From Nitrospira sp. (GTDB lineage Bacteria > Nitrospirota > Nitrospiria > Nitrospirales > Nitrospiraceae), in NCBI GenBank assembly GCA_029194665.1, contig JARFXO010000007.1:124001-188000 (forward strand): a stretch of DNA of 64,000 bases. Direction: 5' to 3'. The notes below the pieces were generated by a model. The model ran no database searches. It had not been told where the DNA came from and was given only the letters and a program-made list of their open reading frames with translations. Position numbers and translations under genes: made by a program. Positions 1 through 39,460 of this stretch are shown here, piece by piece; the first letter of the stretch is position 1; each line of letters starts with the position of its first letter.

Positions 1-2712
1 CATTACGGTCTTCAGCCGACCGATCGTGTGCTGCAATTCGCTTCGATCAGCTTCGATGTGGCGGCGGAGGAATGCTTTCCCACCTGGGCGGCCGGGGCGA
101 CGGTGGTGTTGCGACCCAACGAGTCGGTCCCGGCGTTCGCGGATTTCGAGCAGTTCATCGCGGACCACGGCCTCACCGTGTTGAACTTGCCGACGCCGTA
201 CTGGGCCGAATGGATTGAAGCGATGGAACAGACCGACACAACGCTTCCGCACGCGATCCGTTTGGTCATCGTGGGGAGTGAGAAGGCTCTGCCGGAGAGC
301 CTGGTTCGGTGGCAGCGCCTGGCCGGTGCCCGTATCGCCTGGTGCAACTCCTATGGACCGACCGAAACCACGATCACGGCGAGCTACTTCATGCCGGAGC
401 GACAGAAGGATTGGAGTGCGGCATCGACCGTGCCGATCGGCCGACCGATTGCGAACGTGCAATTGTATGTCCTCAATCCTGCCTTGCAGCCGGTTCCGAT
501 CGGGGTGGCGGGAGAGCTCTACATCGGGGGCGCGGGAGTGGCCAGGGGGTACCATCGGCAGCCGGCCCGAACGGCCGAACAGTTTATCCCGGACTGTTTT
601 AGCCGTGAACCGGGGGCTCGCTTGTATCGGACGGGAGACCGGGTTCGACGGCTGGCGGACGACAATCTGGAATTCCTCGGTCGATACGATGACCAGATAA
701 AGATTCGGGGGTTCCGGGTGGAACCGGCCGAGATTGAGTTGTGGCTGAAGCGACATCCGGCCGTCAAGGATGCGTTGGTCCTCCAGGAATTGAACGAGCA
801 GCCTGGTGGGGCACGAAGGGGAGAGTCGCGATTGATGGGCTGTGTCGTTCCTCGGATCGACAACGCCACGACGGCGCAGGATCTTCGGAGCTTCCTGGCC
901 GAACGTCTGCCCAGATATATGATTCCCGCCGCCTGGATCTTCCTCGATACCTTACCGCTGACGTCGCGTGGGAAGGTGGATCGTCAGGCGCTGAGAGCTC
1001 TCGCCGGACGGATTCAGAAAACGGAACCGGTGTCGGCTCCACTCCAGACCGATACCGAGCAGGCGATTGCAGACATTTGGAAAGAGATTCTCGGCCTCGA
1101 AGCAGTCGGTCGGCACGACAATTTTTTCGATCTCGGCGGCGATTCCATTGCAAGTCTGCAAGTGATTGCCCGGGCTAAACAGGTCGGACTGCTGTTTAGC
1201 CCTCGTCAGATCTTTCAATACCAAACAGTGGCAGAGCTTGCGGCGGTCGCCGGACGGGAAGCAGTGGTTGCGCTGGAAGCGGAGCAGGGAGCGGTCACCG
1301 GCGAGGCGCCATTGACGCCCATTCAACGCGCGTTCTTTGAATTGCCGCTGGTCAATCTTCACCACTGGAATCAATCGGTTTTGCTGGAAGCCAAAGAGCC
1401 GCTCGTGGAGTCCGCCTTGGAGGCTGCGGTGACGGCACTCATCGCTCACCATGACGCGCTACGGCTTCGATTCGTGCAGACGGATGACGGTTGGCGCCAA
1501 TCACACGCGCCGATTCCGCAGGGGCCGCTCGTCTGCCGTGTGAATCTCGCCGCGCTCTCCGACTCGGAACGCCGTGCAGCGTTCGAAGCGCAGGCCACGC
1601 AGTGGCAGGGGAGTTTACATATCTCGGAAGGGCCGCTCTTGCACGTGGTCTGGTTCGAGATGGGGGACGGTTTGTCTGATCGGTTGCTGATTGCGGTGCA
1701 TCACCTTGCGGTGGACGGTGTTTCCTGGAGAATCCTCTTGGAGGATCTGCAGACCTTCTACCGGCAGGCCGTGGAAAACCGTCCTATACAATTGCCGCCC
1801 AAGACGACTTCTTTCCGCCAGTGGGCCGAACGGTTACGGCGGTATGCCGAAACCGAAGTCACGAAAGATCTGCCTTCCATCTTCTGGCCGACGACAGCGG
1901 GAGAGAGATCGATCGTGCTACCTGTCGACGATCCAACCGGCAGTAATCGGGAGGCCGCCTCCGAGACGCTGACTGTGTCATTGGACGAACGGGATACGCA
2001 GGCGCTGTTACATGATGTCTCTGCCGCATATGGAACGCAGATCAACGATGTGTTGTTGACGGCGTTGGCCCAGACCCTCGGCTGGTGGATCGGTCTCGAT
2101 CGTGTGACGGTCGATCTTGAAGGGCATGGGCGGGAGGATTTGTTTCCAGAACTGGATATCTCGCGCACGGTCGGGTGGTTCACCAGTGTTTTCCCGGTGA
2201 CCTTGGACGTGACACGTTCGGAGTCGCCCGGAGAAGCGCTTAAGTCGGTGAAAGAACAACTGCGGAAGATCCCAGGCCATGGTATCGGTTACGGCATCGT
2301 TCGGTATCTGACGAAGAACGGCCTCGACTCAGCTAGGGCACGTCCTGCGCCGCGGGTTCCGGTGGGATTCAATTATCTCGGACAGTTCGATGCGGTCGCC
2401 ACGGAAGAGTCGGCTTTCGTTCTGTCTACAGAATCGGTCGGCAAGGAGCAGGATCCCCGCAATCCGATGGAATATGAACTGGATATCAATGCGTCGGTCG
2501 TGAACGGATGCCTGGAGGTCATGTGGACCTACAGCCGCGAACGCTATCGTTCCTGCACGATCACGTCCCTGGCAACGGCATATCTATCAGACTTGCGCAA
2601 GTTGATCGCCCATTGTCTGTCCACCGACGCAGGCGGCTACACGCCGTCTGATTTTCCGGATGTGGAATTGGAACAGGACGCGCTGGACGCGATCTTGGAG
2701 CAAATGAACTGA
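1..2712 (+). CDS. Non-ribosomal peptide synthetase, 3' part (A-T-E), truncated by window start
   Basis: The reading frame is open from base 1, so the start lies upstream. Seen: the second half of an adenylation domain (NSYGPTETT near base 346, LYRTGDRV near 622, the A10 lysine in GKVDR near 970), a carrier domain with DNFFDLGGDSI near 1117, and an epimerization domain (PLTPIQRAFFE near 1309, HHLAVDGVSWR near 1699, GWFTSVFPV near 2170, NYLGQFD near 2371). The module therefore activates an amino acid and converts it to the D form. Aligned by eye to GrsA, the pocket reads D-V-E-N-V-V-S-I-T-K. Its D-x-E-N start resembles ornithine-type codes, a weak prediction. The acidic C-terminal helix after the E domain looks like a donor docking segment for the next protein, 12 bases downstream. 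Confidence 0.95.
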   Translation, partial: HYGLQPTDRVLQFASISFDVAAEECFPTWAAGATVVLRPNESVPAFADFEQFIADHGLTVLNLPTPYWAEWIEAMEQTDTTLPHAIRLVIVGSEKALPESLVRWQRLAGARIAWCNSYGPTETTITASYFMPERQKDWSAASTVPIGRPIANVQLYVLNPALQPVPIGVAGELYIGGAGVARGYHRQPARTAEQFIPDCFSREPGARLYRTGDRVRRLADDNLEFLGRYDDQIKIRGFRVEPAEIELWLKRHPAVKDALVLQELNEQPGGARRGESRLMGCVVPRIDNATTAQDLRSFLAERLPRYMIPAAWIFLDTLPLTSRGKVDRQALRALAGRIQKTEPVSAPLQTDTEQAIADIWKEILGLEAVGRHDNFFDLGGDSIASLQVIARAKQVGLLFSPRQIFQYQTVAELAAVAGREAVVALEAEQGAVTGEAPLTPIQRAFFELPLVNLHHWNQSVLLEAKEPLVESALEAAVTALIAHHDALRLRFVQTDDGWRQSHAPIPQGPLVCRVNLAALSDSERRAAFEAQATQWQGSLHISEGPLLHVVWFEMGDGLSDRLLIAVHHLAVDGVSWRILLEDLQTFYRQAVENRPIQLPPKTTSFRQWAERLRRYAETEVTKDLPSIFWPTTAGERSIVLPVDDPTGSNREAASETLTVSLDERDTQALLHDVSAAYGTQINDVLLTALAQTLGWWIGLDRVTVDLEGHGREDLFPELDISRTVGWFTSVFPVTLDVTRSESPGEALKSVKEQLRKIPGHGIGYGIVRYLTKNGLDSARARPAPRVPVGFNYLGQFDAVATEESAFVLSTESVGKEQDPRNPMEYELDINASVVNGCLEVMWTYSRERYRSCTITSLATAYLSDLRKLIAHCLSTDAGGYTPSDFPDVELEQDALDAILEQMN

Positions 2713-2724: not shown

Positions 2725-5700
2725 ATGAGTAAGAAAAAGGATATCGAGTCGATTCATTATCTCTCTCCCCTGCAGGAAGGACTGCTCTTTCATGCCGTGT
2801 CCGACGCGGATGCGGATCCCTATTTCACGCAGACCGGCTTCGTCATCGACGGAGATCTGGATCTCGACCCGTTCGAGCAGGCCTGGCACAAGGTGATGGA
2901 ACGTCACCCAATCCTCCGCACCGGCTTCGTCTGGGACGGCGTCAAACAGCCTATGCAGGTTGCGCGGCGCGACGTGCGGGTTCCGTTGCAGCTGCTCGAC
3001 TGGCGGGACCGTCACAGCCGTCAGCGGGACGAAGCCCTGGCGCAGTTTCTGCGTGAGGATCGCCGGAAACCGTTCGATCTGCTGACGCCGCCTATGATGC
3101 GGCTCACGCTGATCCGGATCGAGGACAATCGCTGGTATTTCATCAACAGCCACCACCATATTTTATTGGATGGTTGGAGTGTGGCACTGCTGCTGCGCGA
3201 AGTTGTGATCTGTTATGAGGCGCTCGCCCATGGTCGGCAACCGGTGCTGCCACCAGTAAGGCCCTACGCAGAGTATTTAACTTGGCTGGGGAGCCGCAAT
3301 CTTGAGTCCGCCGAGATGTTCTGGCGGAACGGCCTGGCGGAATTTTCGACACCGACCGCGTTGCCGCTGGAGATGCCGCAACGCGTGGCTTCCGACGAAC
3401 TGAAATCCCTGCCGTACGCGGAGCAGGAAGTGCGACTGTCGAAGGCGGAAGTCGAAACATTGACCACTGTCGCCAAACGCCGCCGCCTTACATTGAACAC
3501 CTTGGCGCAAGGGGCATGGGCGATCCTGTTGCACCGCTGCACGGGGGATCGAGAGGTGCTGTTCGGCGCGACCGTCTCGGGCCGACCGGCGGAACTCCCC
3601 GGGTCGTACGTCATGGTCGGATTGTTCATCAACACGCTGCCGGTTCGGGTCACGCTGCCTCCTGATGCGAAACTGGAGGACTGGCTTGCTTCGCTACAGG
3701 AACAGAATAGCCTGCTGCGGCAATACGAGTGGACGCCTTTGTCACGGATTCAACGCTGGAGCGACACACCGGGCGGGCGGTCGTTGTTCGACAGTATCAT
3801 CGTGTTTGAAAACTACCCGGAAGATGAGAGTGACACGGATCAGCTCGGTTTGCGGATCACTCCTTTGGCTTCTCACCGGCAAGGTGCCGAGTATGTTCTG
3901 ACTGCCGGTCGCAACAACTATCCGTTGTCACTGATGGTGGAGCCGGCCGCGGAGGTACGGTTGATTCTCTCCTATGCGCGCGAGCGATTTGCCCATGGAG
4001 ACATCGCGCGCCTCCTTGGTTATTACCGCACGCTCTTGATGGCGATGGCGGAACGGCCGGAGGTCCGGCTGGCCGAACTGTCTCCGTTGAACGAGGCGGA
4101 GCGTGGCCGGCTGCTGATGGATTGGACCCGCACCACGGTTCCCGTGAGGAGCGAATGTATTCATGAACGGATTGCACGAGTTGCGCACGAACGATCCGAT
4201 GCCGTGGCCGTGGTCTATGAGGGCCAGTCCTTGACCTATGGAGAACTGGACGCCCGGGCGAACCGGCTTGCGCAGTACTTGCAAAAACTCGCGGTCGGTC
4301 CGGACCTGAGGGTCGGTCTCTGTGTGGAACGATCGCTCGACTTGATTGTGGGATTGCTCGGGGTGCTCAAAGCAGGTGGTGCGTATGTGGCGCTCGATCC
4401 CAAGCTTCCGAAAGAACGTCTGGCTTTTATGCTGTCAGATAGCGGTGCGCGAGTGGTCCTCACGCAGACCGCATCCCGCGACCTGTTCAGCGATTCGATG
4501 TTGCGGCAAGTTTATCTGGACCGCGATTGGCCGGAAATCGTGGCTGGGACTGATCAGCCGTTGCGGCGGGACGTGCGGCCGGGGAACTTGGCCTACGTCA
4601 TCTACACCTCCGGTTCGACCGGACGGCCAAAGGGAGTTGCCGTCGAGCATCGCCAGGTCGTTAATTACGTCTCCGGACTTCTGGATCGCCTCTCGCTTGA
4701 TCAGCAGGCCAGTTTTGCGACCCTGTCCACGGTCGCGGCCGATTTGGGCAACACCTCGATTTTCGGTTCACTCTGCTCCGGTCGCACGCTTCACCTGCTG
4801 TCGGTCGATCGGGGGTTCGATCCCGACGCCGTCGCGGACTACATGGCTGGCCACCGGATCGACGTGTTGAAAATCGTGCCGAGCCATCTGGCTGGCCTGT
4901 TGGAAGCGGGGAGGCCGGAGCAGGTGCTTCCGCGGCGCTGCCTGATCCTCGGCGGGGAAGCCGTTCATCCCAGTCTTGTCGAACGGATCCGAAGGCTCGC
5001 ACCGGGCTGCGAGGTCATCAATCACTATGGCCCCACCGAAACAACGATTGGCGTGTTGACTCATCAAATTGACTCGAACGTGGACCGGCCTGCGGCTATT
5101 CCTATCGGACGACCCTTGCCGAACAGCCAAGTCTACATTTTGAATCCGGACGGTCAGCCGACTCCGGTTGGAGTTTCGGGCGAGCTGTATATCGGCGGCT
5201 ACGGGCTGGCGAGAGGTTATCTCGATCGTCCGGACCTGACTGCGGAGCGGTTTGTGCCGAATCCCTTCAGTGGCGGAGGCGGGCGGCTGTACCGCACCGG
5301 TGACAGGGCGCGGTATCGACCGGACGGCACGGTTGAGTTCCATGGCCGTGCGGACCATCAAGTAAAAGTGCGCGGATTCCGGATCGAGTTGGGAGAAATC
5401 GAAGCGCAGTTGAGGGCCGATAGCCGATTGAAGGATGCCGTCGTGATCGTGCGCGAAGCAGCCGACGGCACGAAGCAGCTTGCAGCCTATGTGGCGGCGC
5501 CGGCCGACCTCGACGTGGACTCGTTGCGGGCTCGTCTCGTGGTCCATTTGCCGGACTATATGATTCCCTCGACCGTTACCGTGATGGAAGCGCTTCCCCT
5601 GACCGCCAACGGCAAGCTTGATCGAGCGGCGCTTCCTGACCCCGAACAGGCACAGACGCCGCAGCGTGACGCCTACGCCGCTCCACGGAACGACGTCGAA

Positions 5701-8700
5701 ACGACGCTCGTGCAAATCTGGGCCGACGTTCTCCACCTGGATCGCGTGGGAATCCACGACAACTTCTTTGCGATCGGCGGGGATTCGATCCGCAGCCTCC
5801 AGGTCGTCGCGCGCGCACACAAATCCGGCATCAAGCTGACGCCGAAACATCTATTTGAGCATCCGACGGTCGCGGCCGTGGCGGCGACTGCGCGTACTGA
5901 GGTTACCGGAGTGTCTGCGACGCAGGATTTTTCACTGAGCGGGCTTGAGCCGATCGAGATCGAGGCGCTATTTCCTGACAGGAGCGCAATCGAGGATCTC
6001 TATCCGTTGACGCCGATGCAGGAGGGCATGCTGTTCCATACGCTGTTGAATCCCGGTTCCGGGATTTATCTCATGCAGCAACACTACACGTGGAACGGGC
6101 CTTTGAACCTCGAACGGCTTGTCGAGGCCTGGGGGTGGGTCATCGACCGGCACCCTATTTTACGCACGGCCTACGTGTGGAAGGATCTGAAGCGGCCGCT
6201 GCAGGTCGTGCAGCGACGAATCAATCTCAACGAAGCCGTTCACGTGCTCGACTGGCGAGGCTCGTCCGCTGCCGACCAAAAAGATTGTCTCATCCGCACG
6301 CTCGAGATGGAATTGACCACTGGATTTGACATGAGTCGGGCGCCGCTTATGCGGATTCGATTGATCCGGACGGGCGAGGAGTCGTACCACATCGTCAGAA
6401 GCTTCCATCATATCTTGACCGACGACTGGTGTTTTTCGATTCTGATGATGGAAGTGTTGTCGTACTACGAGGCCTCGCTGAAGGACCGCTCGGTCGACTT
6501 GCCGTCGCCGCGCCCCTATCGCGACTACATCGCGTGGCTCCAGCGCCAGGATCTTGGCGCGGCGGAAACATTCTGGCGCAAGGAGCTGGAGGGATTCGGT
6601 GCTCCGACTTCTCTCGGCGTCGAGCGTCTGTCGTCGTTTCGCCAGGAAGCGGTCTCCGAAGTCGGCGACGAGTTCGGTGAACTGTCGGAACCGGTGACTG
6701 AACGGCTGACCACGCTCGCTCAACAGCAGGGGCTGACGCTGAACACGTTCTTGCAGGGCGCGTGGGCGCTGCTCCTCAGCCGCTACAGCGGTTCCGACGA
6801 TGTCGTGATGGGCGTGACCGTGGCCGGGCGTCCAACGGAGCTCGAAGGCGTGGAATCCATCGTCGGACTGTTCATCAACAGTCTGCCGTTACGGGTTCGC
6901 ATCACGCCGGACAGCTCGGTGCTCGGATGGCTCAAGAGCCTGTTGGCCGACAATTACCGCATCCGGCAATACGAATATCCACCGCTCGTCCAGATCCAGC
7001 AGTGGAGCGAGATCCCTAAAGGACAGGCGCTGTTCAAGAGCCTGGTCGTCTTCGAAAACGCCCCGAACGACCCGCGGCTTGGAGAGCAAGTCGGCGACGT
7101 GAACCTTGAGTTCGACCATGACCGTGTTCACACGAATTACCCGGTGACGGTGGTGGCATACCCAGGTCCGCGATTGGGCATGCGCCTGTCATACGACCGA
7201 TGGTTGTTTGAGCCGGACGCAGTGCGTCGGATGGTAAGGCATTTGACGCACCTGCTTGAGGCCATGGCGATGCAGCCGGAGACATGCCTTTGCGATCTGT
7301 CTCTCTTGAGTGCCGAGGAACGCAGGCAATTGCTCGTGGAATGGAACAAGACAACCGGAGCGCGACCGGAAGAGAGCGGATTCGCCGAATTGTTCGAGGC
7401 TCAGGTGAGGCGGACTCCGAATGCAGTTGCGGCGATCGACGATGAGCGGAGGATGACCTATCTGGACTTGAATCGCGGTGCGAATGGGGTCGCTCACGCA
7501 TTGCGCCGGCGCGGCGTCGGACCGGACCAGATCGTGGCGCTGCTTCATACTCGCGGCATCGACTTGTTAATTATGATCCTCGGCGTCCTGAAGGCCGGCG
7601 GCGCCTACTTGCCGCTGGATCCTCATCATCCGCCCGCCAGGATGGCGCAGATTCTGGGAACCGCCCGCGCGATGCTGTTGCTGACGGTACGAGCGCATAC
7701 AGCGTTGGCCGAAGCCGCCGTTGCCATGACTCCGGAATCCGCGACACAGCTTGTTCTGTTGGATCCCTTGATGAACGAAGCAGACGCCGACGACGATCCG
7801 CCGCGCCTGGGCACCTCCGCGAATCTGTCCTATGTCATCTTCACCTCCGGTTCGACCGGCACTCCGAAGGGTGCGATGGTGGAAGAACGAGGAATGGTCA
7901 ATCATCTGCTCAGCAAGATTCCCGCGCTGGGCCTGTCGGAATCCGATGTTATTGCGCAGACCGCGTCACAGTGTTTCGATATCTCGGTGTGGCAGTTCCT
8001 GACCGGTCTGCTTTGCGGCGCCTGCATTCGGATCCTGCCTGACGACCTTGTGCGCGACCCACAGCGGCTTCTCCGCGAGATCGAACGGTCCAAGATTACG
8101 GTGTGGGAGGCGGTGCCATCGCTCCTTGTCGCCGGACTCGATGGGCCGGTCGTACCCTTGCCTCCGCTACGGTGGCTGCTAGCGACTGGCGAAGCGGTGA
8201 CCCCGGAGTTATGCAGGCTCTGGTTCAGCCGGTATCCGTCGATTCCCTTGATGAATGCCTATGGCCCGGCGGAGTGTTCGGACGATGTCGCGGTGCATGC
8301 GGTGACCGGTGGCCTTCCCGAGGGCACGACCCACGTACCGATCGGCCGGCCGATCCCTCATCTTCGGCTCTACGGGTTGGACGGGAGCGGAGAGCCGGTT
8401 CCTTTCGACGTGGCTGGTGAACTCTATATCGGCGGGGTGGGCGTCGGGCGTGGCTATCTCAACGATCCCGCGAAGACCGCAGCCGCCTTCGTGCCGGATC
8501 CGTTCTCAACCGAACCGGGCCTGCGTCTGTACCGCAGCGGCGATCTCGTGCGGTTCCGCTCCGACGACAGGCTGGAGTTCTTGGGACGGCGTGACCATCA
8601 GGTCAAGATCCGTGGCTATCGCATTGAGTTGGGAGAGATCGAAGCGCGGATCGTGCAGCATCCACAGGTGCGGGAAGCTGTCGTGGCGATCAGGGAAGAC

Positions 8701-10632
8701 CGGCCGGGAAACAAGCGCTTGATTGCCTACGTCGTCGGCAGGAGCCCTGCGTGCGACGCCGCAACCATCCGATCGTTCGTGGCCGAAGCGCTCCCGGACT
8801 ACATGGTTCCTTCCGTCGTGATGTTCCTGGACGCGCTGCCGATGACGCCGAACGGGAAGATCGATCGGAAGGCCTTGCCGGTGCCGGGTGACGATCAACT
8901 GTCGCCGCGCGACGGGGCCCCGGGCACCGCGACCGAAGAGATTATGGCCGGGATCTGGGCCGAGATTCTCGGCCTCAAGCACATCGGCGTCCACGAGAAC
9001 TTTTTCGAGCTGGGCGGCCATTCTCTCCTCGCGACGCAGGTTGTATCACGGGTTCGCTCGGTCTTTCATATTGAATTGCCGTTGCGCGCTTTATTCGATC
9101 ATCCCACCGTTGAAGAGTTTGCTGCTGCTGTCGATGGCTCTGTGGCAGCAGCAGAAGGCAGACAGCTTCCGCCTCTTGTGCCTGCGCCGAGAATCGAATC
9201 CATGCCGTTATCATTTGCGCAGCAGCGGCTCTGGTTTCTATGGCAGCTAGCGCCGGACAGTCCTATGTATAACGTTCCCGTGGCTCTGCGAATCACCGGC
9301 GCCTTGGATGAAGCGGCGCTGGGAAACAGTTTCTATCAATTGGCGTGCCGCCATGAAGTATTGCGTACAACGTTTCCCATGAGCGGAGGTCAACCGATAC
9401 AGGTCATCGCCCCGGAACCCATACATTCGATGTCTGTATCCAACCTCAGGCATCTGTCGAAGGATGAACGCGAGGCAGTGGTTCAATCACTGACGCGGGA
9501 AGAAGCACGCAAGCTCTTTGATCTGTCGAGCGGACCGTTATTGCGCGTGCGCTTGTTGCAAATAGACGACCAGGAACAGGTCCTGCTCGTCACCATGCAC
9601 CATATTATTTCAGACGCTTGGTCAATGACCGTCCTTATCGATGAGATAACGAAGTTATACGCCGCATCTGTGACCGGACAGGCATGCTCGCTATCGCCGC
9701 TGTCGGCGCAATACGCAGATTATGCGATATGGCAGCGGACATGGCTGGAGGGAGATGTACTGGAAAGACAATTGGCGTACTGGAAACAACAGTTGAAAGA
9801 TGTTCCCGTGGTTGCCTTGCCGACAGATCGGCCGAGACCAGCTGTCCAGACGTACCGAGGTGCCATCCATTCAATGAGCATATCTCATGGTGTGGTGGAC
9901 CAGCTCAGGACCTTGGGGCGAAGGCGTGGGGCGACGTTGTTTATGACCCTCCTGACTGTCCTGAAGGTGCTGCTTCGATATGAGACCGGTCAGCGGGACA
10001 TCGTGGTGGGGACCGACGTGACCAATCGCAACCTGCTCGAAGTCGAAAACCTCATAGGCTTCTTTGTCAATCAAATCGTGCTGCGCGTGGCCGTCGATTC
10101 TACGCTCTCATTCCAAGAGCTGCTTGATCGGGTTCGTGATGTGACGCTGGCAGGGCATGCCCATCAGGATGTACCGTTTGAAATGCTGGTCGCTTCCCTC
10201 AATGTGAAGCGCGAGCTTCAGTATTCACCCTTGTTTCAAATCAAACTGATCCTGCAACACGCCACTCCACCTGCAGACGAGCCTCCTGGCTTGGCGCTCA
10301 GCGTCATCGACAATGAAAAGACAACCGCCGAATTGGATGTGTTACTCAATTTTGAAGAGAGCGCCGATGGATTGAGCGGATGGTTTGAGTACAACATCGA
10401 TCTTTTCGATGGCGCGACCATCGCTCGACTTGCGGGGAATTTCTCGGCGATTGTCGAGCAGGCTGGAACGAATCCCCATGTCACCGTTGAAGAAATCGAA
10501 CGCATGCTGGCGGGGCGTGACAATCTCCAGCGAACCAGAATGCGACAAGAGCGTCACGAAGCGACCAGTAGGAGTCTCAAGAGCATCAGGCGAAGGGCAA
10601 TGAGCCCTCCCGTAGAAACCTCCCAAGCATGA
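2725..10632 (+). CDS. Non-ribosomal peptide synthetase, C-A-T-C-A-T-C
   Basis: A 2635-residue synthetase. Domains by motif: C1 (about 10-440, HHHILLDGW near 142); A1 (475-975, YTSGSTGRPKG near 626); T1 (DNFFAIGGDSI near 1011); C2 (1090-1530, HHILTDDW near 1228, with D for the usual G); A2 (1550-2060); T2 (ENFFELGGHSL near 2090); C3 (2159-2590, HHIISDAW near 2291). The A1 pocket reads D-L-T-K-I-G-H-I-G-K, one residue from the published aspartate code. A2 reads D-I-W-E-L-T-A-D-D-K; its acidic residues suggest a basic substrate (inference). The protein ends in a C domain with no A domain after it, so the partner module must be on another polypeptide. The last residues carry LKSIRRRA, echoed at the start of the next protein. 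Start ATG has GGAG about 7 bases upstream. Confidence 0.97.
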   Translation: MSKKKDIESIHYLSPLQEGLLFHAVSDADADPYFTQTGFVIDGDLDLDPFEQAWHKVMERHPILRTGFVWDGVKQPMQVARRDVRVPLQLLDWRDRHSRQRDEALAQFLREDRRKPFDLLTPPMMRLTLIRIEDNRWYFINSHHHILLDGWSVALLLREVVICYEALAHGRQPVLPPVRPYAEYLTWLGSRNLESAEMFWRNGLAEFSTPTALPLEMPQRVASDELKSLPYAEQEVRLSKAEVETLTTVAKRRRLTLNTLAQGAWAILLHRCTGDREVLFGATVSGRPAELPGSYVMVGLFINTLPVRVTLPPDAKLEDWLASLQEQNSLLRQYEWTPLSRIQRWSDTPGGRSLFDSIIVFENYPEDESDTDQLGLRITPLASHRQGAEYVLTAGRNNYPLSLMVEPAAEVRLILSYARERFAHGDIARLLGYYRTLLMAMAERPEVRLAELSPLNEAERGRLLMDWTRTTVPVRSECIHERIARVAHERSDAVAVVYEGQSLTYGELDARANRLAQYLQKLAVGPDLRVGLCVERSLDLIVGLLGVLKAGGAYVALDPKLPKERLAFMLSDSGARVVLTQTASRDLFSDSMLRQVYLDRDWPEIVAGTDQPLRRDVRPGNLAYVIYTSGSTGRPKGVAVEHRQVVNYVSGLLDRLSLDQQASFATLSTVAADLGNTSIFGSLCSGRTLHLLSVDRGFDPDAVADYMAGHRIDVLKIVPSHLAGLLEAGRPEQVLPRRCLILGGEAVHPSLVERIRRLAPGCEVINHYGPTETTIGVLTHQIDSNVDRPAAIPIGRPLPNSQVYILNPDGQPTPVGVSGELYIGGYGLARGYLDRPDLTAERFVPNPFSGGGGRLYRTGDRARYRPDGTVEFHGRADHQVKVRGFRIELGEIEAQLRADSRLKDAVVIVREAADGTKQLAAYVAAPADLDVDSLRARLVVHLPDYMIPSTVTVMEALPLTANGKLDRAALPDPEQAQTPQRDAYAAPRNDVETTLVQIWADVLHLDRVGIHDNFFAIGGDSIRSLQVVARAHKSGIKLTPKHLFEHPTVAAVAATARTEVTGVSATQDFSLSGLEPIEIEALFPDRSAIEDLYPLTPMQEGMLFHTLLNPGSGIYLMQQHYTWNGPLNLERLVEAWGWVIDRHPILRTAYVWKDLKRPLQVVQRRINLNEAVHVLDWRGSSAADQKDCLIRTLEMELTTGFDMSRAPLMRIRLIRTGEESYHIVRSFHHILTDDWCFSILMMEVLSYYEASLKDRSVDLPSPRPYRDYIAWLQRQDLGAAETFWRKELEGFGAPTSLGVERLSSFRQEAVSEVGDEFGELSEPVTERLTTLAQQQGLTLNTFLQGAWALLLSRYSGSDDVVMGVTVAGRPTELEGVESIVGLFINSLPLRVRITPDSSVLGWLKSLLADNYRIRQYEYPPLVQIQQWSEIPKGQALFKSLVVFENAPNDPRLGEQVGDVNLEFDHDRVHTNYPVTVVAYPGPRLGMRLSYDRWLFEPDAVRRMVRHLTHLLEAMAMQPETCLCDLSLLSAEERRQLLVEWNKTTGARPEESGFAELFEAQVRRTPNAVAAIDDERRMTYLDLNRGANGVAHALRRRGVGPDQIVALLHTRGIDLLIMILGVLKAGGAYLPLDPHHPPARMAQILGTARAMLLLTVRAHTALAEAAVAMTPESATQLVLLDPLMNEADADDDPPRLGTSANLSYVIFTSGSTGTPKGAMVEERGMVNHLLSKIPALGLSESDVIAQTASQCFDISVWQFLTGLLCGACIRILPDDLVRDPQRLLREIERSKITVWEAVPSLLVAGLDGPVVPLPPLRWLLATGEAVTPELCRLWFSRYPSIPLMNAYGPAECSDDVAVHAVTGGLPEGTTHVPIGRPIPHLRLYGLDGSGEPVPFDVAGELYIGGVGVGRGYLNDPAKTAAAFVPDPFSTEPGLRLYRSGDLVRFRSDDRLEFLGRRDHQVKIRGYRIELGEIEARIVQHPQVREAVVAIREDRPGNKRLIAYVVGRSPACDAATIRSFVAEALPDYMVPSVVMFLDALPMTPNGKIDRKALPVPGDDQLSPRDGAPGTATEEIMAGIWAEILGLKHIGVHENFFELGGHSLLATQVVSRVRSVFHIELPLRALFDHPTVEEFAAAVDGSVAAAEGRQLPPLVPAPRIESMPLSFAQQRLWFLWQLAPDSPMYNVPVALRITGALDEAALGNSFYQLACRHEVLRTTFPMSGGQPIQVIAPEPIHSMSVSNLRHLSKDEREAVVQSLTREEARKLFDLSSGPLLRVRLLQIDDQEQVLLVTMHHIISDAWSMTVLIDEITKLYAASVTGQACSLSPLSAQYADYAIWQRTWLEGDVLERQLAYWKQQLKDVPVVALPTDRPRPAVQTYRGAIHSMSISHGVVDQLRTLGRRRGATLFMTLLTVLKVLLRYETGQRDIVVGTDVTNRNLLEVENLIGFFVNQIVLRVAVDSTLSFQELLDRVRDVTLAGHAHQDVPFEMLVASLNVKRELQYSPLFQIKLILQHATPPADEPPGLALSVIDNEKTTAELDVLLNFEESADGLSGWFEYNIDLFDGATIARLAGNFSAIVEQAGTNPHVTVEEIERMLAGRDNLQRTRMRQERHEATSRSLKSIRRRAMSPPVETSQA

Positions 10633-10642
10633 GGACCGATCG

Positions 10643-11713
10643 ATGAACGATTCAAGTCAGAAAACCGAGACCATGCCAAGATTGAAAGGCATACGCCGGA
10701 AGGCCATCAGCTTATCCCAGGAGCGCCTTGTGACGGCGGAACCGCTTCTCCCCGAGAAAGTGCTTCCATTGCTGGTTCAGCCAACTGTAACAGGACTCAG
10801 CCTAGTGGGCTGGGCCGAGCAACAACGGGAATGGGTACAGACGCAGCTTCTGTGTCACGGTGCCATCTTGTTTCACAACTTTCACGTCAATGGGGTCACA
10901 GACTTTGAGCAGTGTGTGACCGCCCTATCCGGAGGTGCGCTGGAGTACCGTTTTCGGGCCTCACCGCGCACGCAAGTGGGTGCGAATGTGTATACGGCTA
11001 CCGACTATCCGCCTGACCAGAGCATTTTCCCCCACAACGAGCACGCGTACTCTCCGGTCTTTCCGCTTCAGCTGTTCTTCTATTGCGCCGTTCCGGCGCA
11101 GAACGGCGGAGAAACTCCGATCGGGGATACGCGCGAGGTTCATCGGAATATCGATCCAGAAATCAAGCGACGATTCCTCAAGAAGCAAATCCTGTATGTG
11201 CGTAATTATGGCGACGGTTTCGGCCTTCCATGGCCGACGGTCTTTCAGACCGAGGATAGATCTCAAGTGGAGGCATACTGCCGAAGCGTGGGAATAGAAG
11301 TGGAATGGAAGACAGGGAATCGACTGAGGACCAGGCAAGTGGGACCGGCCGTCATGCGCCATCCACGAACCCAGGAGCCCATTTGGTTCAACCATGGAAC
11401 ATTCTTCCATGTCTCCACATTGGAACCAACCATACGAGAAGCGCTTCTGAAAGAATTCAGCGAAGAGGATTTGCCTCAAAACACATACTACGGAGATGGG
11501 CAGCCGATTGAGCCGGACGTTCTTGAACAGCTTCGGTCGATCTATCAGGAAGCCATGGTTGTGTTTCCATGGCAACAGGGGGATGTCTTGCTATTGGACA
11601 ACATGCTGACCCTTCACGGGCGCAGGCCGTATAGCGGACCGCGTAAAATCTTGGTGGCGATGGCGGAAGCCTGCCGCGGAGCCGATCTTCGCCTGGCGGC
11701 AGAGGAGGTGTGA
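10643..11713 (+). CDS. TauD/SyrP-like Fe(II)/2-oxoglutarate dioxygenase, probable amino-acid beta-hydroxylase
   Basis: A 356-residue member of the TauD/TfdA family. An iron-binding HNEHAYS segment (about residue 131) supplies H-x-E, and a distal histidine lies in LHGRRPYSGPRK near residue 330 with the 2-oxoglutarate-binding arginine after it. The closest functional analogues I recognise are SyrP-type enzymes, which hydroxylate carrier-bound aspartate or related residues in NRPS assembly lines. The gene sits between two synthetase genes (10 bases after one, overlapping the next start region), so it almost certainly acts on the growing peptide. The upstream synthetase has an aspartate-type A domain, which makes beta-hydroxyaspartate the leading product. 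The N-terminus has LKGIRRKA, matching the upstream synthetase's C-terminal tail. Substrate is inferred. Confidence 0.92.
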   Translation: MNDSSQKTETMPRLKGIRRKAISLSQERLVTAEPLLPEKVLPLLVQPTVTGLSLVGWAEQQREWVQTQLLCHGAILFHNFHVNGVTDFEQCVTALSGGALEYRFRASPRTQVGANVYTATDYPPDQSIFPHNEHAYSPVFPLQLFFYCAVPAQNGGETPIGDTREVHRNIDPEIKRRFLKKQILYVRNYGDGFGLPWPTVFQTEDRSQVEAYCRSVGIEVEWKTGNRLRTRQVGPAVMRHPRTQEPIWFNHGTFFHVSTLEPTIREALLKEFSEEDLPQNTYYGDGQPIEPDVLEQLRSIYQEAMVVFPWQQGDVLLLDNMLTLHGRRPYSGPRKILVAMAEACRGADLRLAAEEV

Positions 11714-11715
11714 TC

Positions 11716-18939
<7,224 letters not shown>

Positions 18940-19012
18940 AGGCAGGTCCGTTGCGTAACGACGAGCCGACCGCGAAGGCACGATGGCGCCGTGGGAGCAC
19001 GAAAGGAGCCAT

Positions 19013-19771
19013 ATGCAGTACGAGCCCAATACCAACGAGAAATTCAAGATTGTGATGAACACCTATCGGGTATTCGGAGTCTGGGAAACAGTCAAGGAAG
19101 TGATTCTGTACCTTCTCAGCCAAAAACCAGCCGATAACTTCGACCGGAAATACGGAGTTGCGACCGCGGGTGTGACAGAATCTTCTGAAGCCGGCATCGC
19201 CGATGAAACGGCCAGGAGCTTGGCAGTGGGATATGTGCCGACGAGAGAGGTCGTGATCCGGCATATTCTGACGAACACGACGAAGGGACTCGATCTCAAG
19301 GACTATTCCTTCGTGGATCTGGGATGTGGCAAAGGCCGCGCCTTGATCATCGCTGCTCAATTACCGTTCAAGGAAGTGATCGGCGTCGAGCTGTCCCCAT
19401 TGCACTGCGAGGTGGCGACGGCCAATGTCGAGGGGTATTTGTCGAACGGAAGACATCCCGTGTTGTGCCGGAATATCAGGGTGGACTGCATCAATGCGGT
19501 GGAGTTCGAGTTTCCGGACACCGATCTGCTCATTTACATGTACCGGCCTTTCCTCGGGCCTGTGTTTAAAGAGGTCGCCGATAACATGCGTCGGTTCCAA
19601 GCCGTGACGGGACACCGCGTCTTGATCGCCTACTCCTGTCCGGTCGAGGAGGTGATGCTTGAGGAATATTCGGGGTTTGTAAAGAGAACCGAGTATCAAG
19701 TGATCTCAATGGACTACTCATGGAGTCTGTGGGAATGCCAGGCTGAACAAGCGCAGGCGGTGCTTGTCTGA
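19013..19771 (+). CDS. Class I SAM-dependent methyltransferase
   Basis: A 252-residue protein with the glycine-rich SAM motif FVDLGCGKGRALI (about residues 102-114) and an acidic residue at the end of the second strand (VIGVELSP). Start chosen at ATG 19013 because GAAAGGAG ends about 4 bases upstream; an in-frame ATG at 18983 has no such site. The gene is 73 bases after the terminal synthetase and co-directional, so it may be a tailoring enzyme of the peptide. The fold also resembles stand-alone small-molecule or protein methyltransferases, and the substrate cannot be told from sequence. Confidence 0.85.
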   Translation: MQYEPNTNEKFKIVMNTYRVFGVWETVKEVILYLLSQKPADNFDRKYGVATAGVTESSEAGIADETARSLAVGYVPTREVVIRHILTNTTKGLDLKDYSFVDLGCGKGRALIIAAQLPFKEVIGVELSPLHCEVATANVEGYLSNGRHPVLCRNIRVDCINAVEFEFPDTDLLIYMYRPFLGPVFKEVADNMRRFQAVTGHRVLIAYSCPVEEVMLEEYSGFVKRTEYQVISMDYSWSLWECQAEQAQAVLV

Positions 19772-20044
19772 TTCGGGCATCGCTGCCTCTCATGTTACCG
19801 GTTCCCAGGTTTTCTACGCGCATATTTCCTGCCACGACGTACGAGCTCCAGCGAAAAGGGTTGTCTCCGAAGTAGCGTGCCCACGCCCAGTCTGAAAACC
19901 GTTCCTCGTATGCCGTCACGCCATTGTAACCTCGATCTTGCAGGTGAGGTTTCTCGCGGTTCATCCGTCATATATACGTCTGGGGTCAGTGTGCCAACCT
20001 GAACAGTATGGGGTCCTGTCAGGCGGCGAGAAACAACGTTGCGT
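19772..20044. other. Intergenic region between NRPS cluster and RND exporter
   Basis: About 270 bases without a convincing gene. A minus-strand frame (19964 down to about 19700) reads with protein-like composition, including RFSDWAWARYFGDNPFRW, but runs into the methyltransferase 3' end. It may be a gene remnant or chance. No clear terminator was seen. Confidence 0.4.
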
Positions 20045-21112
20045 ATGAGATTGAAAAACGTCGCGGGAGTGGTCGCAATCTGTGCCGTACTTGCCGCCAT
20101 AGGTGTCAAACTCGGAGGTTGGTCAACGAGTGAGTCCGCGACGGGAGTACCGGCATCAGAACCGAGCGTCATGGTTGAAGTCGCACCCGTCATCGTCGGT
20201 TCAGTTACGGAGTCGATCCAGGCCGTGGGGACGCTGGAGGCCATCGCCTCGATCACGGTGAGGCCCGAGATTGCCGGTGTGATTCGCCGGATCCATTTTC
20301 AAGACGGACAGGTTGTCGAACGGTCGGCCCCGCTGTTGGAATTGGAGCCGGAGGAACTCCAGTCACAGGTGAATCAGGCAACGGCGCAGGAAAAAATGGC
20401 GTTGCTGACGTACGAGCGACTGAAGCGGCTGAACGATCAGCAAGACGTCATTGTGCCGACCCAACAGATCGATGAAGCGAGAATGGCCTGGCATGCGGCG
20501 GCTGCGAACAGCCTTCTCTATACGACCCGGCTGAAGAAAACCGTCATCCGCGCGCCGTTCGGCGGAACGGTGGGGCTTCGTCGCGTCTCGGTCGGGGATT
20601 ACGTGCAGCCCGGGAAAGATATCGTGAATTTGGAGGATTTGAGTACGCTGCATGTGGATGTCAAGGTGGCGGAAGTATGGTTGAGTCGCCTCCATGTCGG
20701 CCAAAAACTGATCGTGACGACCGATGCGTTCCCTCACACGACGTTCGATGGACAGGTGACGGCGATCGATCCGAGAGTCGATGCGACCAACCGGACGGTC
20801 GCGGTACGCGCCGCGATTCCGAATCCGGCCGGCACACTGCGTCCCGGTCTCTTTGTCACCGTGCGGTTGAACCTGGGCGAGAATACGCAGGCGCTCCTGA
20901 TCCCGGAAGAGGCGGGGTTTCTTCGCCAGGACAAGGCGATGGTGTTTCGGCTGGAGGAACGAACCGCCCGACTCACTGAAGTCGCCCTAGGTCTGCGTGA
21001 GCGGGGGCTGGTCCAGGTTCGATCCGGATTGAAGGAGGGCGATCGTGTGGTCCGAACCGGCACCCACAAGTTGCATGACGGTGAACGTGTCTCGATCAAA
21101 TCATCCGAGTAG
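20045..21112 (+). CDS. RND efflux periplasmic adaptor subunit (HlyD/AcrA family)
   Basis: About 355 residues: N-terminal hydrophobic segment (signal anchor, residues 1-30), a first lipoyl half (TVRPEIAGVIRRIHFQDGQVV), an alpha-hairpin rich in Q/E/R/L (about 110-150), a second lipoyl half (VIRAPFGGTVGLRRVSVGDYV), then beta-barrel and membrane-proximal parts (VDATNRTVAVRA, LRPGLFVTV). This is the standard membrane fusion protein layout linking an inner-membrane RND pump to an outer-membrane channel, both encoded next. Start choice: ATG 20045; an in-frame TTG at 20039 has GGCGAG 8 bases upstream and is equally possible. The position behind the NRPS suggests peptide export, but a general drug or metabolite exporter cannot be excluded. 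Confidence 0.93.
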   Translation: MRLKNVAGVVAICAVLAAIGVKLGGWSTSESATGVPASEPSVMVEVAPVIVGSVTESIQAVGTLEAIASITVRPEIAGVIRRIHFQDGQVVERSAPLLELEPEELQSQVNQATAQEKMALLTYERLKRLNDQQDVIVPTQQIDEARMAWHAAAANSLLYTTRLKKTVIRAPFGGTVGLRRVSVGDYVQPGKDIVNLEDLSTLHVDVKVAEVWLSRLHVGQKLIVTTDAFPHTTFDGQVTAIDPRVDATNRTVAVRAAIPNPAGTLRPGLFVTVRLNLGENTQALLIPEEAGFLRQDKAMVFRLEERTARLTEVALGLRERGLVQVRSGLKEGDRVVRTGTHKLHDGERVSIKSSE

Positions 21113-21162: not shown

Positions 21163-24100
21163 GTGGGCGTGAGCTTTTCCGAGACCTGTCTCCATCGGCC
21201 GGTGTTCGCTGTCGTCATGACGCTCTTGCTGATGTTATTCGGCCTCTTGAGTTTTTTTCGGTTGCCGGTTCGTGAGTACCCCGACATCAAGCCACCGATC
21301 GTCTCGGTCCAAACAGTGTATCCGGGGGCCGGCGCATCCGTTATCGAGTCGGACGTGACGACACCGCTCGAGGACTCACTCAGCGGCATTCAGGGGCTCA
21401 GGACGATCACGTCGTCCAGCCGCGAAGAAGTGTCATTGATCACGCTCGAATTTGAATTGGGGCGTGACCTGGATGGAGCGACCAACGACGTCCGCGATCG
21501 GGTTTCTCAGACCCGTCCATTGCTGCCGCTGGGCATTCTTGAGCCGTATGTCGAAAAGGCCGCGGCGGAGAATACCGAAATTCTATGGATTGCCGTATCC
21601 AGCGACCGTCATTCTGAATTGGAGCTCACCGACGTCGCCGATCGCTTTATCAGGGCACGGTTGGCGATGATTCCCGGAGTATCCGCGACCTACCTCGACG
21701 GTGAACGGCGCTATGCCATGCGGATTTGGTTGGACCCAGACCGACTCGCTGCTCGTCGCTTGACTGTTGAGGACGTGGAAGACGCTCTCCGAAATCAGAA
21801 CGCCTCGATCCCGGCCGGCCGGATCGAGAGCAATCAAATGGAATTCGGCGTCTCGTTGAAGGGCACCTTAGAGACATCGAAGCAATTCGAATCGCTCATC
21901 GTGGCCTACCGCGACGACTATCCGGTGCGCCTGGAGGATATTGCTCGCGTCGAACTCGGCGCGGAGGATACCCGAAAGCTTGGACGTTTCGACGGCAAGC
22001 CGTCCTTGGGCATTTCCGTATCCCGGCAGTCCAGAGCCAATACGTTGGCGGTGGCGCGCGCGGTAAAGGAACAGCTTCCCGTCATTGCGGCGGGGCTGCC
22101 CGACGGCATGCAGATGACGCTCGCCTGGGACAGTTCGACGCCGATCGAGCAGTCGCTACACGAAGTGTATGTGGCCTTGGGGCTTTCGTTGGTCCTCGTC
22201 GTGCTGGTGATCTTTTGTTTCTTGGGGAGCGTACGCGCGACGCTTGTGCCGGCTGTCGCCATTCCGGCATCGATCATCGGGACCTTCACGGTCATGGCGG
22301 TGACCGGGTGCTCGCTGAACGTGCTGACCTTGCTCGGGCTCGTGCTCGCCATGGGGCTTGTGGTGGATGACGCGATTATCGTGTTGGAGAACATTCATCG
22401 CCGGATCGTCGCCGGCATGCCGCCCATACAAGCGGCGATCGAGGGCACGAACGAAATCGCCTTTGCCGTCATCGCAACGACCATCTCGCTGGTGGCGGTC
22501 TTCGTCCCGATCGCCTTTCTAACCGGAATCGTGGGCCAACTGTTCGCCGAATTGGCCATCGCCGTCACGTCGGCCGTGCTGCTGTCCGGTTTCGTGGCGC
22601 TGACGTTGACACCGGTCATGTGCGGGCGATTGCTGCCCCAAGAAATCAGGTCCACCCGGTTTCGATCAGCCGTATCATTGGCTGAAGGTGTCGTTCAACG
22701 CTATCGCCATGGGCTCGTATGGGCGCTCCATGCCAGGACGGCGGTCGTCGTCGTGGCGATCGGAGCTAGCCTGGCCAGCCTCTCCATCCTGACCCGGCTC
22801 CCGTCAGAATTGGCTCCCCTCGAAGACGCTGGGTGGTTCTCCGGTTTCCTCACCGCGCCTCAGGGCGCCACTCTTCGCTATACCGATACCTACGCCAAAG
22901 AATTGGAATCGCTGTTCAAGACGGTCCCCGAAATTACGCATATCTATACGACGGTGGCGAGCGGAGAGCGTCCGACGAGAGTCAATCGTGCCGAGAGTTG
23001 GGTCACGTTGAAGGATTGGAACGATCGCGCCAGGAGTCAGCAGGAAATCGTGGCAGGCTTGAATGAAGAACTCGGCAAGCTGACCGGCGTGAAGGCCTAT
23101 TTGTTGAATCCTCCTTCTATTGGAGACTGGTCGGATAAGACACCCGTACAGTTCGTCCTCGGAGGGTTCGACTATCAGGAGTTGCAGCAGGCCGCTGAAA
23201 GGTTGAGGGCACGACTGGCCGACCATCCCGGCTTCGTCACGCCTGAAATCGATTTAGCGTTGAATACGCCGCATCTTGTCGTCGAAACACATCGCGACAA
23301 GGTCGCGGATCTCGGCCTGTCCGTCACCAGCATCGGGCGAACGCTGGAGACGTTGCTCAGCGGAAGGCCGGTCGGCACGTTCGTACAGAACGGGCGTCAA
23401 TATAAGGTGATCGTGAAAGTGGACGATCGACGTCGCGAAACACCCTCGGATATCAGTCGGCTCTATGTGCGTGGGAATGAACGCGAATTCGTGCAACTCA
23501 ACAATGTCGTGACGGTCAAAGAGGTACCGGCCCCTGAAGCGTTGAACCATTTCGATCGCATGCGCGCCGTCACTGTCAGCGCGGGGCTGGCCGACGGGTT
23601 CACGTTGGGGCAGGCCTTGACCTATTTGGACGAGACTGCAAAAGACGTGATCAAGCCTGGCATGCGGACGGCCTATGCGGGAGAAACCAAGACTTTCGCC
23701 GAAAGCAATCGAAACCTCTATATGACGTTCGGGTTGGCCTTGGCGGTGATCTTCTTGGTGCTCGCGGCCCAGTTCGAGAGTTTCCGGCATCCCTGGACGA
23801 TCCTTCTCACGGTGCCTCCGGCCCTGTCGGGATCGTTGTTGTCTTTGGCCGTGATCGACGGAACCCTCACCATCTATAGCCAAATCGGTTTGGTGATTTT
23901 GATCGGGCTGGTGACCAAGAACGCCATTCTGATCGTGGAATTCGCCAATCAGCTTCGTGAACGGGGGCTCGACCTGTCCCAGGCGGTGACTGAAGCGGCG
24001 ACGTTGCGACTTCGCCCAATTCTCATGACGACCTGTGCGACGATCCTCGGAGCCTTGCCGCTCGCGCTGGCCACCGGGGCGGGAGCAGCCGGCCGCCGTC

Positions 24101-34659: not shown

Positions 34660-35034
34660 TCACAGCCGAACGACCTCCAAGCTGACCTGCTGAAAGCCTA
34701 GGCCACGAATCTCATCGACCAGCGCGACGAATTTTTCGAGCAATGTGACCTTGTCCGCTCGCACGACCACGGCCGATTCGCGAGCTCTGGCGGCCAAGAC
34801 CGATGGGAGGCCCCCGGATGGAACCGGAGCATCATTTAGAAACAAGTTTCCATCCGCAGTCAATGAAATCACGATGGGAACATCCTTGTGGTCGCTGACC
34901 TCTTTGGCCTTAGCCAAGTTGACGGGAATCTGTCCCGTGCTGATGAAGGTGGCGGTGGTCAGCACGATGACGAGAAGGACCAACATGACATCCACGAGCG
35001 GGATGACGTTGATTTGATCAATGTTCCGTTCCAT
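34660..35034 (-). CDS. exbD: ExbD/TolR family biopolymer transport protein
   Basis: 124 residues. Short cytoplasmic N-terminus (INVIPLVDVMLVLLVI), with the conserved membrane aspartate of ExbD/TolR about residue 13, one helix, then a periplasmic domain with PIVISLTADGNLFLND and SAVVVRADK. With ExbB it forms the proton-driven motor that energises TonB (iron/siderophore receptors) or Tol. Start ATG 35034 has GGAG 6 bases upstream. It overlaps exbB by 17 bases. The siderophore-type neighbours favour a TonB role, but no tonB or receptor gene is in the window. Confidence 0.9.
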   Translation of the reverse strand: MERNIDQINVIPLVDVMLVLLVIVLTTATFISTGQIPVNLAKAKEVSDHKDVPIVISLTADGNLFLNDAPVPSGGLPSVLAARARESAVVVRADKVTLLEKFVALVDEIRGLGFQQVSLEVVRL

Positions 35035-36703: not shown

Positions 36704-36710
36704 GGTAGTT

Positions 36711-38294: not shown

Positions 38295-38309
38295 TGGGAG
38301 CTTGGGGAG

Positions 38310-39377: not shown

Positions 39378-39460
39378 GACCAACCCTTCTGTCTAGGTGG
39401 AGGGGAGTTGAAACCGGCAAGCCGCCTTAAAAAAACGAATACCAGAAACGGCAACAGGGG

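What the first reader, a model, noticed from the sequence alone, without database searches (positions are those of the whole stretch)
2725..18939. NRPS line likely builds a beta-hydroxyaspartate peptide, possibly a siderophore
The first A domain of the 2725-10632 synthetase has a pocket (D-L-T-K-I-G-H-I-G-K by eye) one residue from the published aspartate code, and a SyrP-like dioxygenase is encoded inside the cluster. Such enzymes make beta-hydroxyaspartate, an Fe(III) ligand in siderophores. A Fur gene, ExbBD and Fe(III) ABC importer are within 25 kb. The chain starts upstream of the window, so the full peptide is unknown.
Basis: partly seen in the sequence, partly recalled or inferred. Interest (0 to 1): 0.7.

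Follow-up and report, generated by a model that had tools for sequence, protein, structure and literature searches.

The report
Nitrifier iron-scavenging peptide assembly line
These genes in a complete-ammonia-oxidising bacterium very probably build a fatty-acyl iron-scavenging peptide with two iron-gripping residues, hydroxy-aspartate and (unexpectedly) hydroxy-histidine, and the dioxygenase singled out here appears to make the histidine one, inside a cassette that some sister species carry in an aspartate version.

Summary
In detail: the first A domain of 2725-10632 reads DLTKIGHIGK, and a TauD/SyrP-like dioxygenase lies at 10643-11713. The full line (about 48 kb, C7:94555-142939, mostly upstream of the window) is FAAL-X-PKS-Dab-Ser-Dab-X(E)-Asp-Dab-His-Dab-TE, with TonB receptor, ECF sigma/FecR, PvdE-like exporter, Dab aminotransferase, acylase and MbtH: a lipopeptide siderophore line. 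It has two dioxygenases. The one in the window (TauD2) is probably not the aspartate enzyme: it falls in a 21-row clade whose members are all followed by a condensation-like 'interface' domain (motif unread in one) and an A domain with the published histidine code DSALIAEVW (one DSALVAEVW). It most likely makes beta-hydroxyhistidine. Beta-hydroxyaspartate is best assigned to TauD1, 12 kb upstream of the window. The host is a comammox Nitrospira (own AmoA; Nitrospira 16S probe site). Against sister genome G027 the line is about 85% identical DNA, but window ~9.0-14.75 kb (C-TauD2-interface-A[His]) is there C-TauD-interface-A[Asp]: a natural one-cassette chelator swap. New variant of a known kind. 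Function is inferred; substrate X and any third iron ligand are unknown.

The parts
1..2712 (+). 3' end of NRPS3 (starts at window -5177): rest of A5 (code DVENIGSIT), T, epimerisation domain
   Evidence: gene is C7:118823-126712
2725..10632 (+). NRPS4: C-A6(Asp-type, DLTKIGHIG, 4153-5694)-T-C-A7(Dab-like, DIWELTADD, 7375-8928)-T-C9
10643..11713 (+). TauD2, Fe(II)/2-oxoglutarate dioxygenase family, predicted histidine beta-hydroxylase (IBH_His type); H131-N-E133 and H325 probable metal ligands
   Evidence: Pfam TauD 4.3e-47; invariant in 9 aligned relatives; clade; PHNEH motif
11710..18939 (+). NRPS5: interface domain (LPGYCVDG in place of HHxxxDG)-A8(His-type, DSALIAEVW, 13120-14658)-T-C-A9(Dab-like, 16306-17874)-T-thioesterase
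11743..13080 (+). interface domain: condensation-superfamily domain without the HHxxxDG motif, lowest PF00668 score of the 13 matches in the genome (183 bits)
   Evidence: end coordinate as
9000..14750 (+). exchangeable cassette C9-TauD2-interface-A8(His): not alignable to sister line G027 (C-TauD-interface-A[Asp] there), while both flanks are about 85% identical DNA
1..1149 (+). end of A5 region that matches relatives' A1 rather than their A5 (A1 copy pasted into module 5; region starts at window -722)
18983..19771 (+). putative SAM methyltransferase, conserved after the NRPS in relatives G027 and G006; role unknown
20039..21112 (+). RND efflux adaptor, possible siderophore export (inference)
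21163..24285 (+). RND efflux permease
24437..26041 (+). TolC-type outer-membrane channel
34660..35452 (-). ExbD and ExbB (energy for TonB-dependent uptake; genes 34660-35046 and 35018-35452)
35576..39383 (-). ABC importer, ATPase/permease/binding protein, iron(III)-type by layout
39461..40030 (-). Fur-family regulator

Best explanation
The region is the 3' part of a hybrid NRPS-PKS line in a comammox Nitrospira that makes a fatty-acylated (perhaps later deacylated) peptide siderophore, predicted as acyl-X-(malonate-derived hydroxy unit)-Dab-Ser-Dab-X(E)-OHAsp-Dab-OHHis-Dab. TauD1 (upstream of the window) hydroxylates Asp held on module 6 without an interface domain. TauD2 (10643-11713) docks on the interface domain at the start of NRPS5 and hydroxylates His held on the module-8 carrier. 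The chain is released by the terminal TE, leaves through a PvdE-like ABC exporter and/or the RND pump, and returns as the ferric complex through the TonB receptor under ECF-sigma/FecR control. Shown by computation: genes, domain order, codes, clades, cassette exchange. Inferred: substrates, hydroxylation products, iron binding, export and uptake.
For: Whole line and accessory genes. [quoted passage not shown] TauD2 sits in a 21-row clade (SH-aLRT 99): 19 rows labelled interface+His, one of them (L051) with the motif in an alignment gap; the two unread rows were later read as interface+His. Domain before a His-code A domain: 29 of 31 interface-like, the other 2 HN-type; before an Asp-code A domain: 48 of 56 without HHxxxD (one of them an alignment gap), 8 canonical including this Asp module. 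TauD1 sits in a 24-row clade (97), no row with an interface domain next to it. Metal motif: HNEH in 21 of 21 rows of the His clade, 0 of 24 of the TauD1 clade, 0 of 42 interface-Asp rows. Dab aminotransferase above the NCBIfam cut-off (788.8 vs 671 bits). TonB receptor with STN domain, FecR, ECF sigma.
Against: No enzyme with a proven reaction is in the tree; labels rest on neighbouring A-domain codes and one published code survey. His-linked rows are not one clade: 10 of 29 lie outside it, 5 with the same HNEH motif and 5 with HNEG, so the motif is not required for His pairing; HNEH also occurs in 5 rows whose partner code was not read as His by the script (1 of 18 fused, 2 of 11 I-other, 2 of 11 other no-interface rows). 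Asp-type codes can also serve Asn: DLTKVGHVGK is reported for both (PMC12283262, passages). Only two hydroxy-acid chelators are predicted, so a third iron ligand is missing or unrecognised; no convincing ornithine monooxygenase (two partial hits of 22-24 bits). No Fur-box match within 3 mismatches in 20 kb around the receptor. The loci were collected by TauD similarity, which enriches for TauD-linked modules. TauD2 is 49% identical to TauD1 over 312 aligned residues, so cross-activity is possible.
Confidence: 0.8

Rival explanations
1. One reading: TauD2 is a SyrP-like aspartate beta-hydroxylase acting on module 6 (A6, Asp).
For: A6 is one residue from the Asp code; TauD2 lies right after the synthetase that carries A6; stand-alone hydroxylases can act in trans.
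Against: Clade, interface domain and His-code neighbour; HNEH motif absent from all 24 TauD1-clade and 42 interface-Asp rows; a second, TauD1-type enzyme is present in all six Nitrospirales lines compared over their length, each with an Asp module 6 and a canonical C domain.
Confidence: 0.08
2. Both dioxygenases work, but one residue stays unhydroxylated, or TauD1 acts elsewhere (for example on Dab or X), so the product has a single hydroxy-acid chelator.
For: Stand-alone enzymes carry no positional signal; the number of chelators predicted is odd for iron (two).
Against: Of 16 lines or fragments with a TauD1-type gene that were read for modules, 14 show an Asp-code module after a canonical C domain; the other 2 (G003, G058) were too short to tell. 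Two of the 14 (Eleftheria, Methylosinus) were typed by best tblastn hit only, not by the tree.
Confidence: 0.1
3. The product is not a siderophore but another bioactive lipopeptide that happens to contain hydroxy acids.
For: Related hydroxylases also serve syringomycin-family clusters, and the OHAsp lipopeptide turnercyclamycin is named as a false positive (PMC12971057, passages); RND pump next door.
Against: TonB receptor with signalling domain, ECF sigma and FecR inside the cluster, cyclic-peptide exporter family member, iron genes 16-21 kb downstream.
Confidence: 0.07

Closest known systems
IBH_His histidine beta-hydroxylases and interface domains of siderophore NRPSs (Reitz et al. 2019, recalled; subtypes named in PMC12971057, passages)
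   Same: Stand-alone TauD gene directly before a condensation-like domain without HHxxxDG and a DSALIAEVW A domain; same clade as Pseudomonas, Massilia, Variovorax and Methylocystis examples
   Different: Host is a comammox Nitrospira; His module is next to last, whereas in the Pseudomonas line read here (G061) it is first
Variochelins (Variovorax; PMC10999976, passages)
   Same: Acyl-loading, A domain, then PKS start, and a hydroxyaspartate residue; there Arg plus methylmalonate give 4-amino-7-guanidino-3-hydroxy-2-methylheptanoate
   Different: Variochelins use two hydroxamates; here no convincing ornithine monooxygenase, OHHis instead, AT motif HAFH (malonyl type, recalled), first A code DVENIGSIT rather than DAEDLGAIT read in a Variovorax line, Dab-rich body
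Corrugatin / ornicorrugatin / histicorrugatin (Pseudomonas lipopeptide siderophores)
   Same: Line G061 (Pseudomonas; naming it corrugatin-type is recalled) has an acyl-loading start, eight modules with Dab and Ser codes, and TauD1-type, His-type and fused Asp-type hydroxylases
   Different: No PKS module in G061; different order; terminal interface-Asp module
Pyoverdine (PvdE, PvdQ, PvdH counterparts, recalled)
   Same: Cyclic-peptide exporter and Dab aminotransferase families; penicillin-amidase-family acylase
   Different: No chromophore gene among the cluster genes read (the genome was not searched for them); acylase scores 55 bits against the PvdQ model cut-off of 950

Membership tests
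IBH_His hydroxylase (for TauD2) | TauD-superfamily dioxygenase with HxE...H metal site | tested here: met
   PF02668 4.3e-47; H131, E133, H325 invariant in the alignment of 9
IBH_His hydroxylase (for TauD2) | Interface domain (C-like, no HHxxxDG) directly downstream | tested here: met
   LPGYCVDG, domain at 11743-13080
IBH_His hydroxylase (for TauD2) | Paired A domain with His code | tested here: met
   DSALIAEVW, His code in PMC12283262
IBH_His hydroxylase (for TauD2) | Groups with characterised IBH_His enzymes | tested here: inconclusive
   Groups with 20 other His-linked rows, but no row has a proven reaction; the antiSMASH IBH_His profile was not available
IBH_His hydroxylase (for TauD2) | Hydroxylates carrier-bound His | not testable with these tools
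   needs enzyme assay
SyrP / aspartate beta-hydroxylase (for TauD2) | Clusters with aspartate-linked hydroxylases | tested here: not met
   21-row clade contains no Asp-linked row; SyrP itself was not in the tree
TBH_Asp (for TauD1, C7:111205-112245) | Stand-alone, no interface domain next to it, Asp module with canonical C domain in the line | tested here: met
   24 of 24 clade rows without a neighbouring interface domain; own Asp module HHILLDGW
TBH_Asp (for TauD1, C7:111205-112245) | Groups with characterised DelD-type enzymes | not tested
   no characterised sequence was at hand
NRP metallophore cluster | C and AMP-binding gene plus chelator gene (IBH_His or TBH_Asp by profile) | tested here: inconclusive
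   genes present; the profiles themselves could not be run
NRP metallophore cluster | Dedicated ferric-siderophore receptor | tested here: met
   TonB receptor with plug and STN domain, FecR and ECF sigma adjacent; its ligand is untested
Variochelin-type start unit | FAAL-T-C-A-T followed by KS-AT-KR-ACP | tested here: met
   (FAAL named by position and by its Pfam C-terminal match, an inference)
Variochelin-type start unit | A domain loads arginine | tested here: inconclusive
   DVENIGSIT not found in print and only partly like DAEDLGAIT

The most novel reading that the evidence does not exclude
In Nitrospira a single natural recombination cassette (condensation domain, beta-hydroxylase, interface domain, A domain) is exchanged between an OHAsp and an OHHis version in an otherwise collinear siderophore line, so the iron-binding group of a nitrifier's siderophore is swapped as one unit; the interface domain travels with its own hydroxylase and A domain, which defines an evolved fusion boundary for engineering chelators.
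Probability: 0.6. Interest if true: 0.65.

Novelty: new variant of a known kind. Interest (0 to 1): 0.55.

Why it matters
Comammox bacteria are thought to have a high iron demand, and a 2022 review marks siderophore synthesis in Nitrospira inopinata as still in controversy (PMC9693385, passages). This gives a concrete, testable structure for one comammox siderophore, corrects which enzyme probably makes which ligand, and adds a rare chelator (OHHis is in under 2% of detected metallophore regions, PMC12971057, passages) to a phylum where that survey counted 16 regions in 15 of 307 genomes. The cassette boundaries are a natural experiment in chelator exchange.

Tried and rejected
Rejected: TauD2 as the Asp enzyme. 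Rejected: hydroxamate chelators (only partial 22-24-bit hits). Tried without result: Fur-box scan; code strings in print (0 papers; only DSALIAEVW(K) found, 1 paper); naming the host by 16S against plasmid records (531 records matched, the five listed at about 79% and none of them Nitrospira). Script faults: one search stopped on a wrong marker string and was mended; one search prints residue numbers 5 too high (corrected here). Rows dropped: TauD hits under 200 aa and repeated identical sequences, and for the tree those under 280 aa; A and C hits under 200 aa, 120 aa or 150 aa. Structure prediction, fold search, Rfam search and strand folding were not used. antiSMASH and structure-based A-domain predictors were not available. 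Supplementary files could not be read.

Full report
WHAT IS THERE. The window is G000:C7:124001-188000 of a 4.80 Mb genome in 17 contigs, and the upstream part was fetched and read.

THE WHOLE LINE. In C7 coordinates: ECF sigma 89777-90457, FecR 90558, TonB receptor with STN domain 91621, NRPS1 FAAL-T-C-A1-T 94555 (FAAL is an inference from position and Pfam), PKS KS-AT-KR-ACP 99962, cyclic-peptide ABC exporter 104403, Dab aminotransferase 106315, penicillin-amidase-family acylase 107718, MbtH 110159, stand-alone TE 110296, TauD1 111205, NRPS2 112242, NRPS3 118823, NRPS4 126725 (window 2725), TauD2 134643 (window 10643), NRPS5 135710 (window 11710). Codes: A1 and A5 DVENIGSIT; A2 DIWEVTADD; A4, A7, A9 DIWELTADD; A3 DVWHVSLID; A6 DLTKIGHIG; A8 DSALIAEVW. 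Reading DIWELTADD as Dab and DVWHxSLID as Ser is from recall; the Dab aminotransferase, above its NCBIfam cut-off, agrees. DLTKVGHVGK, two residues from A6, is reported for Asp and also for Asn (PMC12283262, passages). An epimerisation-type domain follows A5. The AT motif is HAFH, which I recall as malonyl type. Thirteen PF00668 matches are in the genome, eleven here and two in one 3100-aa ORF on C1.

WHICH DIOXYGENASE DOES WHAT. TauD1 and TauD2 are 49% identical over 312 aligned residues. In these and in plasmid loci, the domain immediately before a DSALxAEVW A domain lacks HHxxxD in 31 of 31 cases: 29 interface-like, this one included, and 2 (L085, L102) of the form HNSILDG. Before Asp-code A domains it lacks HHxxxD in 48 of 56 (one an alignment gap), and 8 are canonical, among them the Asp module of this line. 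For all other codes 124 of 146 are canonical; of the 22 not canonical, 8 are alignment gaps. The loci were found through TauD genes, so these shares are not population frequencies; the contrast between the two modules of this one line is what counts. A tree of 137 TauD rows (quick method, SH-aLRT only) puts TauD2 in a 21-row clade at 99: 19 rows labelled interface+His (L051 with its motif in an alignment gap; L044 with DSALVAEVW) and 2 (L014, L015) whose DNA ended too soon. Longer DNA of their genomes G012 and G058 shows interface+DSALIAEVW in both. TauD1 is in a 24-row clade at 97; none of the 24 has an interface domain as its next domain. Against a simple picture: 10 of the 29 His-labelled rows lie outside the 21-row clade, and the label needs at least 4 changes on starred branches. 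Around the metal motif, all 21 rows of the clade read HNEH (20 PHNEH, 1 AHNEH); of the 10 His-labelled rows outside, 5 read PHNEH and 5 LHNEG. HNEH is in 0 of 24 rows of the TauD1 clade and 0 of 42 interface-Asp rows, and in 5 of the 40 remaining rows (1 of 18 fused, 2 of 11 I-other, 2 of 11 other no-interface) (numbers printed are 5 too high). [quoted passage not shown] The interface-domain concept is from recall of Reitz et al. 2019, which was not held. Of 12 genomes with a TauD2-type locus searched for TauD1, 9 have a match at 50-62% identity and 3 (G067, G068, G069) only weaker ones of 40-45%.

HOST. The 16S gene holds a Nitrospira probe site without mismatch (probe recalled), and the AmoA protein scores 353-362 bits against ammonia monooxygenase structures and 243 or less against particulate methane monooxygenase chains. 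So the host is very probably a comammox Nitrospira; nitrite oxidoreductase was not looked for.

NATURAL CASSETTE SWAP. Six Nitrospirales lines were read over their length: this one, G012, G010, G027, G006 (same genus) and G055 (same order, other family code). All start FAAL-X-PKS-Dab-Ser-Dab by code and have an Asp-code module 6 after a canonical C domain. This line and G027 are collinear at 84.6-85.6% DNA identity over the synthetase genes except in two places. First, C7:123278-125149 matches A1 of G027 (83.5%), not its A5: a copy of A1 sits in module 5, where G010, G027, G006 and G012 have a Dab-like and G055 a Ser-like code. Second, window 9052-14640 has no collinear match; the drop is near 9000 and the return between about 14650 and 14800. 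The best same-type matches in G027 to C9, TauD2, interface and A8 are 47, 50, 30 and 45%, while the following C, A and TE are 90, 85 and 80%. G027 has C-TauD(fused)-interface-A[DLTKVGHIG] instead. G012 shares the His cassette (92-96% by protein) but has a Gly-like module 7 (DILQLGLVW; substrate recalled), as has G006. In the genus, 12 of 79 genomes have a hit at 1e-60; 9 show two hydroxylases, 2 of the His type (G000, G012) and 7 with a fused-type second one. Of those 7, three (G006, G010, G027) were read as Asp and four were not read. AMO was found in G000, G012, G073, G074, G110 and not found in G006, G010, G027, G084, so the second hydroxylase type does not simply follow lifestyle. Direction is inferred only: the Asp form is commoner and is present in G055, so His is probably the newcomer.

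KNOWN AND NOT KNOWN. The acyl-X-PKS start resembles variochelins, where X is Arg (PMC10999976, passages); here X is unproven, because DVENIGSIT matched no paper. Module and A-domain exchange is known in pyoverdines (PMC11366639, passages). PMC12971057 counts 16 metallophore regions in 15 of 307 Nitrospirota genomes; the passages seen do not name their chelators. PMC9765116 (passages) reports NRPS and NRPS-PKS clusters in Nitrospira and has no occurrence of 'siderophore' in its main text. Searches on comammox with siderophore (36 papers, 15 listed) and with nonribosomal peptide (5 listed), and on OHAsp with OHHis hydroxylases (1), listed no paper whose title or abstract start is on an OHHis siderophore of Nitrospira; supplements and unheld papers were not seen. 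Open: a third iron ligand, the fate of the acyl chain (acylase scores 55 bits against a cut-off of 950 for PvdQ), and the role of the methyltransferase at 18983-19771.

Noticed in passing
window -722 to 1149 (C7:123278-125149): A5 is a pasted copy of A1 (86% DNA over the first 1145 window bases); the five sister lines read keep a Dab-like or Ser-like A domain there.
   Followed up: yes
G012 and G006, module 7: Module 7 is Gly-like (DILQLGLVW) instead of Dab-like: a second exchangeable module in the same line.
   Followed up: partly
window 44347-45552 and 50078-62930: Genes for a TIR-FGE-sulfatase fusion, TPR-S proteins, a caspase-like peptidase, a 1878-aa CHAT/alpha-beta-hydrolase protein, a patatin and a weak TIR-TPR protein: looks like a conflict or cell-death island.
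   Followed up: no
G000:C1:1075507-1080018: A second NRPS ORF (3100 aa, two condensation domains) elsewhere in the genome.
   Followed up: no
L062, L067, L069, L086, L108: TauD-interface pairs followed by A domains whose pocket reads SSRDxAxGI, neither Asp nor His; may be misaligned or a further substrate.
   Followed up: no
L050 (Acidobacteria MAG): TauD-interface pairs before A domains DAWQFGLIE and DAKDVGVVD: possible hydroxylation of other residues.
   Followed up: no
L058, L063, L073, L078, L098 (cyanobacterial contigs): His-linked TauD rows outside the main His clade with LHNEG instead of PHNEH: His pairing seems to have arisen or moved more than once.
   Followed up: no
window 26516-28252 (-): 578-aa protein with a partial di-haem cytochrome c peroxidase/MauG match next to the efflux genes.
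   Followed up: no
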